Positions 27,395-30,545 of a stretch of 64,000 nucleotides of DNA are shown here, piece by piece. The notes beneath the pieces were generated by a model. It saw only the letters and a program-made list of their open reading frames with translations, did no database searches and was not told the origin of the DNA. Each line of letters starts with the position of its first letter. The stretch's first letter is position 1. A program made the translations under genes and the position numbers. The DNA is from Carya illinoinensis (taxonomy: Eukaryota; Streptophyta; Magnoliopsida; Fagales; Juglandaceae): the NCBI RefSeq assembly GCF_018687715.1, contig NC_056758.1:10109501-10173500 (forward strand), read 5' to 3'.

Positions 27395-27961
27395 CTACTA
27401 GCTAGGGGTGTTCAACCGGATCCGGATCCGGATATCCGGCCATAACCGGATCCGGATCCGGATTTTAAAAACCGGGCGGTTATCCGCCCGGATTCACCCG
27501 GATTCCAATCCGGGCGGATAACCGGATTTAATCCGGATATCCGGATTATAACCGGATACCCGGTTTTTTGAAAATTTTACCTTAAAACCCGGATATCCGG
27601 GTTATAACCGGGTTTAATCCGGGTTTTTTTTTTTTTTTTTTTCAAAGACTTTAAAACTCTAAAAAAAAAATTTTAATCTGATATCCTGTTTCAATTGCCC
27701 AATTTGTTTTAAAAAATAATTTAAACACATTTTATAAGTTTAAAAAAAAAAAAGTAAATTAAAGAACAAAATAAATAAAAATGCAAAATAGATAATATTT
27801 TTGTTTAAATCTCAATGCAAAACAGAAATTTACAAAGAACAAAATAAAACATAAATTTACAAAGAAAAAAATAAATAATAATACATTATACCTAATTAAA
27901 CTAATATAATGCTGCTACTATTTCAAAAAAAAAAAAAAATTACAATGAGGAACCAAATCAG

Positions 27962-28120
27962 GTCCAAATCAGCATCAATCTGGACTTTAGGCTATCTTCG
28001 TCTATCAGGTCCAAATCAGCATCAATCTGGACTTTAGGTGAACTTTTTGTGGCCTTCTTGGTAGCAAACGAGGAACCAATCTTCCAAGAAGGTTTCTTAG
28101 CCTTGACCTGGGCAAAGAGG
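27962..28120 (-). pseudogene. Captured anamorsin/DRE2 (CIAPIN1)-like exon fragment
   Basis: The minus strand reads VKAKKPSWKIGSSFATKK, then SSPKVQIDADLDLIDEDSL. This is very like the segment of plant anamorsin (DRE2/CIAPIN1, the cytosolic Fe-S assembly electron-transfer protein) just before its cysteine motifs. A TTTGCCCAG acceptor-like sequence directly precedes VKAKK (at about 28109), as if a genomic exon had been copied. The expected LLTEEDLK and cysteine motifs do not follow; instead about 35 bp encoding PKVQIDADLDL is repeated in another frame and then stops. It has no function as an Fe-S protein. The identification rests on my memory of plant DRE2. Confidence 0.7.
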
Positions 28121-28527
28121 ACACCAAAATTCAACTGACTAGCCAAACATCAATGTTCAAGAAACTGTATAATCAATGTTCAAGAATTTTTTAGACTTTC
28201 ATTTTACAATAAAAGAACTAACTCAGAAAACCCATTAATAGAGCTTAGTTGAAACAAGGTGTGTAAAAGCAACTTCAGCCTCTTCTATATTAAAAAATAT
28301 CATTAATCAAGCTTTCTATTAGTTTTGAAAGCATACCCTTTGAATGATCAAGCAATGTTCCAGCTGTTGCTGAATAAATCAACTCCCATGTTGATCAATA
28401 CTGAATTAAACACGAATCCAAGATTATTACTTTCACAACAAAGAGTAAACAAAAAAAAAATAGCAATGTCATTTAACAAGAACTGGTTGATTTTAAAAGA
28501 ATGAGATCAAAGGAAGCCAAGGCTTAC

Positions 28528-28875
28528 TGTCATCTCAACAGTACTATTGCTGTTCAGGACAGTGAATTTCCAATCAGGAACGTATGTCCCATAAATTACA
28601 GCCAAGTAAACAATAAGAACACTTGCTGCCACAAGCCTGAAAATTAGAACAGAGAACAATTTTAAAATCAACTTTATTAGGAAATTTTTCTCATGAATTT
28701 AAGACAAAAAACACTTCCACAATATTACCAGTGCCAAAAGTACAACTTGAATACAGAGAACCAGCTGGACCCTGGATCCTTGCCTCGGGCATCTGTTGAA
28801 AAGATTTCCACCAGTGCCACAACCAAATATCCAATAAGCCCATTTATGGTCAAAAGCAGAATAATACTAATAATA
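28528..28875 (-). pseudogene. Captured HGSNAT-like (DUF5009 type) membrane protein fragment, two exons
   Basis: On the minus strand, GYLVVALVEIFSTDARGKD and FSVFKLYFWHW end at a GTAATA donor (exon end 28729). After a roughly 90-bp intron with a TTTTCAG acceptor (exon start 28636), LVAASVLIVYLAVIYGTY and VPDWKFTVLNSNSTVEMT run to a GTAAGC donor (28528). Joining the exons restores the codon for Trp between WH and LVAAS. This matches plant heparan-alpha-glucosaminide N-acetyltransferase-like proteins (for example Arabidopsis At5g27730, recalled), covering two membrane segments. It is a small internal part only, so it is non-functional. The retained intron shows that genomic DNA was captured, not mRNA. 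Confidence 0.75.
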
Positions 28876-29894
28876 AAAGACAATGCAATGTGAAATATTT
28901 CTCTGACGGGCTAACAGGATATCTAAATTTCAGGTCAGGCCAAAAGATTTATGGTAATATCAGAGCTTCTCCTAACTCAAAAACAGTGTCACATGAAGAC
29001 TACAGGGATAAACTAGATTAAAATGTATGCTGCTTTCTGCTTTAGTCTTGGGCTATAAGGAAAGGTGAGGGAAAGGTAACTAGATTATATATATATGTGC
29101 AGGTAAGTTTCACTTTCGTGTGGGCATGCAGTGGGCTTGCTGAAGCCTGCAGGCAACCGTATGATTATGCATATATGGGTGATATATATGTAGTATCTGA
29201 TCTCTGAATAAAACCTGTATATGGCGTTTGGAATATGTTTTAAGAAGTTGCAAGCTGTGGTGAGTGTTTATCCAATTATATATCCGTAATATATATGCCT
29301 ATGCCTGGATCAAAACTTTGTTAAATTTGAGTTCATCATCTCGATTTGCTTATTAAATGGCTGGTTGTTTTCAGATATAAAATTATAATCATTGATTCAT
29401 TATTAAATTATATAATTTGTATAAAGTTCAATCAACTTATAATAAGAGCCAACTTTTCCACTAAGCAAGTTAGGTGGCTGTCTAAGGCTCTACAGTGGAA
29501 GAAGACTCAATAAATTAAAATGAGAAGTAATAAAAAAAATTGAAAAAAAAAATGAAATATCTAAACTCTCAAAGAGACATTAATACTGCTAAGATTAAAT
29601 AAATTATCTCAACTTCAATAAAATAAGCCAAAGACATTTGAGAAACCAAACAGCCCACGCCAAGGAAGAAGGGACTGCTATATTTTCAAACAGCGAAAAC
29701 CCCTCCCATGTTTACATTTCCTACCTTATATTGGGCTTAATCGAAGAGACTCCAAAGACTAACAACACAGAATATATGAATAAGTGATCCACGAAAACCC
29801 CTCTCGCAAGCAGGCAGAATAATGCTAACAACACAGACAATGTTGGGGTCACCTTTATCGTGGGAGCACATCACTAATCAGGTACTTAACCCAG

Positions 29895-29934
<40 letters not shown>
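29895..29934. repeat. A(40) homopolymer and purine-rich degenerate repeat
   Basis: Forty consecutive A residues, followed to 30180 by a degenerate repeat built from AAACCCAGAAAAAA, CCAACCAAACCGAGAGAG and CAGAGACAGAGA. Open frames on the minus strand here (Phe/Leu/Ser-rich) are artefacts of this repeat. Confidence 0.9.
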
Positions 29935-29936
<2 letters not shown>

Positions 29937-30545
29937 AACTGAGAGAGAGGCAGAGACAAATCAAACACAAACCCAGAAAAAAATCTAACTAAACCGATAG
30001 AGAGACAGAGACAGAGAGACCAAAAGCATGAAAAAGGAAATCCAACCAAACCGAGAAAAAAAATCTAATACAAACCCAAAAAAAAAAAAGCCAATACAGA
30101 CCTAAGCGAAAATCCAATACAAACCCAGAAAAAAAAAACCAACCAAACCGAGAGAGAGATAGAGAAAGAGAGATTAACATACCGTATGCTTCGAGAGAGT
30201 TGAGAGACAGCGATGAGAGACGGCACGGCTAGAGAGACGGCACGGCTAGGGTTGAGAGAAGACTGAAGTTGAGTGAGGCTTAGCAATCCGTTCGAGCCTT
30301 CGAGAGAGTTGAGAGGAAAAGAAATGAAAGAGACCGCAACGGTATCGTTTTCGGCAAAAATAAAACCATGCGGATCCGTAACCCGGTTACGGATTACCGG
30401 GTTTTACAACCGGATCCGTAATCGGATCCGTGTTTTATAAATCCGCCCGGGAGTAATCCGGGCGGATAACCGCCCGGATTCACCCGGATCCGGATTTCCG
30501 GACCGGATCCAAAAAAAATCCGGTCCGGATGCACACAGTACTAGC

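What the first reader, a model, noticed from the sequence alone, without database searches (positions are those of the whole stretch)
27403..30537. hAT-like element carrying fragments of two unrelated host genes
CCGGAT-rich ends, a short TIR and a 7/8 target duplication bound a 3.1-kb element. It contains, on one strand, an anamorsin/DRE2-like exon and a two-exon HGSNAT-like piece with its intron. Gene capture is well known for Pack-MULEs and Helitrons but less often shown for hAT-type elements. A leader-like segment at 30180-30340 could drive a chimeric transcript.
Basis: partly seen in the sequence, partly recalled or inferred. Interest (0 to 1): 0.85.

Follow-up and report, generated by a model that had tools for sequence, protein, structure and literature searches.

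The report
Pecan hAT transposon carrying gene fragments
A young, multi-copy jumping DNA element in what appears to be the pecan genome has copied pieces of at least three unrelated host genes into itself, and longer relatives that still bear a jumping-enzyme gene already hold one or two of these pieces; it is a well-resolved new example of a known kind of gene-shuffling transposon.

Summary
Window 27403-30537 is a 3,135-bp hAT element, almost certainly in pecan (Carya illinoinensis). Four more full-length copies (97-98% identical) have intact tips (TAGGGGTGTTCAACC...GGATGCACACCCCTA) and 8/8 target duplications; the window copy has 7/8 and a damaged right tip. The five differ by only 0.42-0.53%, star-like: a recent spread. 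Both cargo pieces are real, with parents elsewhere: DRE2/anamorsin on C8 (95%) and HGSNAT-like on C7, 7.4 Mb away (97%). Four longer relatives carry the DRE2 piece beside a hAT transposase gene, one without a stop codon; two of them also carry HGSNAT with the same right junction. Capture most likely began in transposase-bearing elements, and the short form came later. Retained introns, parents still in place, junction microhomology and a 47-bp back-step favour template switching during gap repair (inferred). hAT gene capture, also beside transposase genes, is in print (grapevine Hatvine-6, maize Ds2/Ds-l4, Pack-hAT): a new member of a known kind. No expression evidence was found or testable.

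The parts
27395..27402 (.). Left target-site duplication CTACTAGC
   Evidence: Direct reading; four other copies have perfect 8-bp duplications at the same element boundary
27403..27947 (+). Conserved left end of the hAT family (TIR TAGGGGTGTTCAACCGG plus CCGGAT-rich subterminal repeats)
   Evidence: Element positions 1-545 recur at many places in the genome (only 40 of 698 candidates scored)
27957..27987 (-). Back-stepped partial copy of the DRE2 exon (tandem unit, 47-bp spacing); missing in the C11 element and in copy L013
   Evidence: (family D9)
27988..28147 (-). Captured DRE2/anamorsin piece: exon (27991-28107 aligned as coding) plus about 40 bp upstream of it, intron by inference (AG before the coding start)
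   Evidence: 95% over 160 bp to the C8:6.614 Mb parent, 78.6% over 168 aligned positions to the C7:35.865 Mb paralogue; protein hits to plant anamorsins
28148..28452 (.). Patchwork of family and unassigned sequence; 28148-28308 shared with the C11, C10:31.61 and C1:14.89 elements (and 28151-28276 with C3:4.019 Mb, 94%, not identified); 28294-28452 recurs, whole or in part, at several other places
28453..28834 (-). Captured HGSNAT-like piece: exon A 28728-28829, intron, exon B 28528-28635, then part of the next intron
   Evidence: 96.6% over 382 bp to C7:2782440-2782821; 72-aa conceptual translation 94% to Carya P0001, 90% to Juglans P0002
29086..29638 (+). Third captured piece: sequence just 3' of a Bet v 1/MLP-like gene
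   Evidence: 93.3% over 553 bp to C6:9702687-9703228; 83-84% at two more C6 places; Bet v 1 exons lie upstream in the fetched loci
29639..29957 (.). Segment also found on C1 (93% over 29643-29828 at C1:7992607; 89% and 94% for two parts at C1:54.94 Mb) and in the C5:38.25 Mb element; source unidentified, possibly a fourth capture
29958..30537 (-). Conserved right end; lies upstream of the transposase gene in the C5:27.44 Mb relative; includes the leader-like 30180-30340
   Evidence: 89% to the right end of the C5:27.44 Mb element, whose transposase gene reads away from this end
30538..30545 (.). Right target-site duplication GTACTAGC (7/8); the adjacent 3' tip of the element is altered

Best explanation
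The feature is a non-autonomous Pack-type hAT transposon. An ancestral, transposase-bearing hAT element of this family copied a DRE2 exon, and then an HGSNAT-like two-exon stretch, into the region between its transposase stop codon and its far end. It did so at the DNA level, most likely by template switching while the gap left by excision was being repaired. A descendant then lost the transposase gene, gained a 3' piece of a Bet v 1-family gene, and was spread in trans to five full-length copies by a transposase from an intact relative. SHOWN: element structure, cargo, parents, shared junctions with transposase-bearing relatives, recent star-like spread. INFERRED: the repair mechanism, the exact order of events, trans-mobilisation, and that the cargo has no selected function.
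For: Five full-length copies with shared ends; 8/8 TSDs in 4 of 5 and 7/8 in 1 of 5. Pairwise divergence 13-16 substitutions per 3,025-3,106 bp. Parents on other chromosomes or 7.4 Mb away, exons in place, with introns shared by the copies. C11, C12, C1:14.89 and C10:31.61 Mb elements carry the DRE2 piece plus a hAT transposase gene; C11 has no internal stop over all 703 aligned residues. The C10:31.61 Mb element (6,523 bp, TSD TCTGGCTG 8/8) carries DRE2, HGSNAT and a transposase gene with three stops. The related C5:27.44 Mb transposase matches zf-BED, hAT-like RNase-H and Dimer_Tnp_hAT; frames of the C10:31.61 and C12 elements match the last two. Junction microhomology and back-step.
Against: The transposase tree does not resolve the order (supports 0.79 and 0.29), so the C5:27.44 Mb element, in which no DRE2 or HGSNAT match was found, may have lost rather than never had cargo. 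A second DRE2 bit in L023 means capture was larger, or happened more than once. C11's DRE2 piece differs from the window copy at only 1 of 139 bases (0.72%), so exchange of this piece between lineages is not excluded. Of the four DRE2-bearing transposase elements only C10:31.61 has both tips and a TSD read: C11's last ~90 bp were not obtained, C12 has no right tip and C1:14.89 neither tip by pattern search. Sources of 28148-28452, 28835-29085 and 29639-29957 are not settled. No expression or mobility data.
Confidence: 0.85

Rival explanations
1. The cargo was first assembled in a short non-autonomous element and later passed to transposase-bearing relatives by recombination or gene conversion between copies.
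For: The transposase tree is poorly resolved, elements of the family are clearly mosaic, sharing segments in different combinations, and C11's DRE2 piece differs from the window copy at only 1 of 139 bases.
Against: The DRE2 and HGSNAT pieces in C1:14.89 and C10:31.61 Mb differ from the window copy by 1.4-4.8%, more than the 0.4-0.5% among the five short copies, so these two are not descended from the young burst; the Bet v 1 piece was found only in the short form among the elements examined.
Confidence: 0.12
2. The cargo was captured from transcripts (reverse-transcribed) rather than from DNA.
For: The HGSNAT and DRE2 pieces lie on the same strand as the transposase gene.
Against: Introns are retained: the HGSNAT intron between exons A and B, its following intron, and the sequence upstream of the DRE2 exon match the parents; the Bet v 1 piece lies beyond the coding exons.
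Confidence: 0.02
3. The element is under selection as a new chimeric gene, driven by the promoter assumed at the right end.
For: DRE2 and HGSNAT exons are in the sense orientation with respect to the conserved right end and keep open frames in the window copy.
Against: Among the five copies L012 has a frame break and L013 a stop in the DRE2 exon; C10x has stops in the HGSNAT exons and C1x one in the DRE2 exon; synonymous and nonsynonymous changes against parents are similar in number (window copy 7 versus 5 over the three exons). No chimeric protein among 35 hits (candidates limited by the tool to 0.55-1.75 times the 112-aa query).
Confidence: 0.04

Closest known systems
Hatvine-6 (hAT family of grapevine; Benjak et al. 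2008, PMC2528002; passages seen)
   Same: hAT family whose members share transposase and TIRs while the remaining region varies from copy to copy and often matches genic (exon and intron) sequence; its table lists 17 elements with potentially functional ORFs, so transposase-bearing hATs with captured sequence are already in print.
   Different: Its table lists TIR 13 bp and TSD 9 bp; here TSD 8 bp. Sequence homology to Hatvine-6 was not tested. Here a stepwise series with shared junctions, and a derived transposase-less form in a recent burst, could be followed.
Pack-hAT elements (Gisby and Catoni 2022, PMC8903248; surveyed in maize and rice, more abundant in maize; passages seen)
   Same: Non-autonomous hAT elements with 8-bp TSDs holding captured coding DNA.
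   Different: Pack-TYPE is defined there as non-autonomous; here related elements with the same cargo also bear a transposase gene.
Ds2 and Ds-l4 elements of maize with gene fragments (Du et al. 2011, PMC3260210; passages seen)
   Same: Filler DNA captured with introns from a gene on another chromosome; 8-bp TSD.
   Different: Different TIR (11 bp) and species; there 2 Ds2 and 9 Ds-l4 elements with gene fragments were reported; here pieces of three different genes lie in one multi-copy element.
hAT-linked amplification of a housekeeping gene in fungi (PMC6710886; search listing only)
   Same: Host gene multiplied by transposons, hAT named often.
   Different: Fungi; paper not read.
Pack-MULEs and gene-carrying Helitrons
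   Same: Transduplication and shuffling of host gene fragments (general knowledge; mentioned in the passages).
   Different: Different superfamilies; the 8-bp TSD and short TIR here do not fit them (their own marks recalled).

Membership tests
hAT superfamily | 8-bp target-site duplication | tested here: met
   8/8 in 4 of 5 full-length copies, 7/8 in the window copy
hAT superfamily | Short TIRs of hAT type | tested here: met
   TAGGGGTGTTCAACC / GGATGCACACCCCTA, shared by copies and, with small changes, by relatives; that TAGGGGTG is hAT-typical is recalled
hAT superfamily | hAT transposase in family members with the same ends | tested here: met
   zf-BED, hAT-like RNase-H, Dimer_Tnp_hAT in L026, inside an element with related ends and TSD GGATCCAT 8/8. 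The window element itself has none
Pack-TYPE (Pack-hAT) | Non-autonomous element with captured host coding DNA between TIRs | tested here: met
   The window copy matches the transposase-bearing C5 element only at its ends, and the other four copies are 97-98% identical to it; DRE2 and HGSNAT exons with parents elsewhere
Pack-TYPE (Pack-hAT) | Parent gene present elsewhere and distinct | tested here: met
   C8:6.614 Mb, C7:2.782 Mb and C6:9.703 Mb
Hatvine-6 | Sequence homology to the grapevine family | not tested
   No Vitis transposon sequence was compared
Pack-MULE | Long TIRs and 9-bp TSD (recalled) | tested here: not met
   Short TIR and 8-bp TSD
Helitron | No TIR and no TSD, 5'-TC / CTRR-3' ends (recalled) | tested here: not met
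   TIR and TSD present
Chimeric expressed gene | Spliced transcript crossing captured exons | not testable with these tools
   No RNA-seq; protein search found no chimera

The most novel reading that the evidence does not exclude
In this hAT family, gene capture is not a by-product of transposase loss: transposase-bearing, potentially autonomous elements serially accumulate host gene pieces in one region downstream of the transposase gene, and transposase-less Pack-hATs are a late derivative. The genome preserves the intermediate states (DRE2 only with an open transposase frame; DRE2 plus HGSNAT with a decayed transposase; DRE2, HGSNAT and Bet v 1 without transposase). Hatvine-6 is a partial precedent.
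Probability: 0.6. Interest if true: 0.55.

Novelty: new member of a known kind. Interest (0 to 1): 0.42.

Why it matters
Gene capture was called rare in hAT elements (PMC3260210, passages). This case offers identified parents for three pieces, several intermediates in one genome, shared junctions, and a recent burst, which makes the order and mechanism of capture testable. It also warns annotators of this genome that DRE2, HGSNAT and Bet v 1 fragments in this family are transposon cargo.

Tried and rejected
Pfam on six raw frames of the element found no family above its cut-off, and PDB sequence searches with two of the frames found nothing: the pieces are too short; full-length homologues were needed. 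P0001 itself has no Pfam-A match at 0.001; its HGSNAT identity rests on its database name, on P0002 (PF07786) and on solved HGSNAT structures. Rfam: 0 matches in the window at gathering score. Further copies inside the window: beyond the element itself only short similarity. A single contiguous host segment as source was considered, because the Carya HGSNAT (P0001) and anamorsin (P0116) proteins lie on contigs of the same length; rejected, since the best DRE2 source is on C8 (95%), not the C7 paralogue (78.6%). Retro-capture rejected by intron retention. An annotated chimeric protein was sought and not found. Never answered: genome searches for sources of 28835-29085, of 27950-28260 and of the C5:27.44 Mb element's variable region, and a fetch of the C11 right tip and of candidate sources on C1 and C3. 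Papers: 0 for 'pecan', 'transposon', 'gene capture'; 4 for 'Carya illinoinensis', 'hAT', 'transposable elements', 'genome assembly', seen as a listing only.

Full report
ORIGIN. The window lies at G000:C7:10109501-10173500 of a 674-Mb, 17-contig assembly. C7 is 44,211,509 bp long, the same length as the contig listed for the Carya illinoinensis proteins P0001 and P0116, and two HGSNAT exons on C7 translate identically to P0001. I infer that this is pecan.

ELEMENT. A whole-genome search with 27403-30537 found five full-length or nearly full-length matches: the window itself (100%), C3:48.64 Mb (98%), C10:9.29 Mb (98%), C10:12.59 Mb (98%) and C1:46.25 Mb (97%), plus many partial ones; 76 matches came from 40 scored of 698 candidates, so this is a lower bound. 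All five begin TAGGGGTGTTCAACC. The four copies outside the window end in GCACACCCCTA and have duplications CCATGCCA, CTCATGAT, GATATTAT and CTATTATC, each 8/8 by my reading of the printed flanks. The window copy has CTACTAGC / GTACTAGC (7/8) and a shortened right tip. The copies differ pairwise by 13-16 substitutions in 3,025-3,106 aligned bases (K 0.0042-0.0053); each differs from the column majority by 6-9 substitutions, and only one minority site is shared by two copies. That is a recent, star-like spread. An absolute date would need a mutation rate that I did not test.

CARGO. (1) DRE2/anamorsin: 160 bp, 95% to C8:6.614 Mb and 78.6% to a C7:35.865 Mb paralogue. A translated search with Juglans anamorsin found this exon in nine element copies, the five short ones and four others at C1:14.89, C10:31.61, C11:12.83 and C12:3.55 Mb. 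The protein search gave 146 hits among 153 candidates (120 listed), the best being anamorsin homologues of Juglans; over 42 aligned residues 37 match the Juglans protein and 32 the Carya P0116. (2) HGSNAT-like: 382 bp at 96.6% to C7:2782440-2782821, with exon A, intron, exon B and the start of the next intron; 27 protein hits among 58 candidates, best 94% over all 72 residues to Carya P0001. P0001 matches solved HGSNAT structures, though no Pfam-A model, and its exons are found across the parent locus. (3) A Bet v 1-gene piece: 553 bp at 93.3% to C6:9702687-9703228; this locus has a Bet v 1 (PF00407) exon upstream on the + strand, and a second exon is read in its frame and matches the family in the sister locus L019, so the piece comes from the 3' side of that gene. 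(4) 29639-29957 has further matches on C1 (93% over 186 bp at C1:7.99 Mb), source unidentified. 28148-28452 is itself a patchwork shared piecewise with other places, among them C3:4.019 Mb.

RELATIVES WITH TRANSPOSASE. The C5:27.44 Mb element (5.5 kb; TSD GGATCCAT 8/8; no DRE2 or HGSNAT match found) has an open frame of 715 aa, 703 from its first MEGSF methionine, with zf-BED, hAT-like RNase-H and Dimer_Tnp_hAT domains. It reads away from the right end, so the conserved right end, including the 'leader-like' 30180-30340, lies upstream of the transposase gene. Of the four longer elements with DRE2, C11 aligns over all 703 residues without a stop (95.3%); C10:31.61 has 3 stops; C12 has 1 stop and a frame break; C1:14.89 has 4 stops and a frame break. 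C10:31.61 is complete: 6,523 bp, TSD TCTGGCTG 8/8. The right tip and TSD of C11 were not obtained (server busy); by pattern search C12 shows no right tip and C1:14.89 neither tip in the stretches fetched. Two of these four (C1:14.89 and C10:31.61) also carry HGSNAT, with the same right junction as the short form; L022 (C3:22.5 Mb) carries 98 bp of it. The Bet v 1 piece was found only in the short form among the elements examined.

ORDER AND MECHANISM. The simplest order is DRE2, then HGSNAT, in transposase-bearing elements, between the transposase stop codon and the left end; then loss of the transposase gene with gain of the Bet v 1 piece; then the burst. Divergences mostly fit: the HGSNAT piece differs 3.6% from its parent and 4.2-4.8% from the two relatives, while the burst copies differ by 0.4-0.5%. 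Against a tidy order: the transposase tree is weakly supported (0.79, 0.29); C11's DRE2 piece differs from the window copy at only 1 of 139 bases; L023 holds another 64-bp DRE2 stretch from a different part of the gene; and C10:31.61 has a different left part of HGSNAT with a re-copied bit. At the DRE2 left junction the flank shares AATGAGGAACCAA with the DRE2 parent, after which the sequence steps back and repeats with 47-bp spacing; C11 and copy L013 lack one unit, which looks like slippage loss. The HGSNAT left junction lies in a shared A-run and the Bet v 1 left junction in a TA-run. No shuffled control was made for these microhomologies. With introns kept and parents in place, this favours DNA copying with template switching during gap repair; PMC3260210 cites errors during repair of excision breaks as a suggested route (passages). 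This step is inferred.

FUNCTION. The cargo looks like passenger sequence. Against parents, the window copy has 7 synonymous and 5 nonsynonymous differences over the three aligned exons; L012 has a frame break and L013 a stop in the DRE2 exon, C10x (C10:31.61) has stops in the HGSNAT exons and C1x (C1:14.89) one in the DRE2 exon. A search with the joined cargo protein gave 35 hits among 40 candidates; the largest coverage was 63% of the query and none is named as Carya, though many are unnamed. Expression was not testable.

PLACE. The insertion lies about 700 bp upstream of the inferred start codon (31238) of a 3-dehydroquinate synthase gene (Pfam DHQ_synthase, DHQS_C); the element's right-end promoter, if active, would point away from it.

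KNOWN OR NEW. Transduplication in hAT elements is in print: Hatvine-6 of grapevine, with transposase-bearing members (passages), Ds2 and Ds-l4 of maize (passages), Pack-hAT in a maize and rice survey (passages). A 2026 review of gene capture in plants had no whole-word 'hAT' in its main text. I found no paper on gene capture in pecan in the one search made for it. So: a new member of a known kind, with an unusually full set of intermediates.

Noticed in passing
window 30544-30636: An inverted repeat (39-nt arms, 82% complementary, 15-nt loop) overlaps the right target duplication by two bases and follows it; looks like a small hairpin element next to the insertion.
   Followed up: no
window 31238 to about 34100: 3-dehydroquinate synthase gene on the + strand directly downstream of the element.
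   Followed up: partly
window 2298-2788 and 5434-5928: Direct repeat, 84% identical over about 496 bp.
   Followed up: no
window 7065-8064 and 23061-23867: Dispersed repeat pair in two pieces, 72-75% identical.
   Followed up: no
window 9494-9699, 13336-13662, 58029-58360, 58564-58767: One repeat family with four places in the window, about 74-75% identical.
   Followed up: no
L023 2453-2516 (coordinates in element orientation, C6:9.6 Mb): Another related element holds a 64-bp DRE2 stretch (94%) from a different part of the gene than the window element.
   Followed up: partly
L014 4741-6999: The C1:14.89 Mb element sits beside open frames that look like a cytochrome P450 (recognised from memory, not searched).
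   Followed up: no
window 29639-29957: Possible fourth captured source on C1 (7.99 and 54.94 Mb) whose identity was not found.
   Followed up: partly
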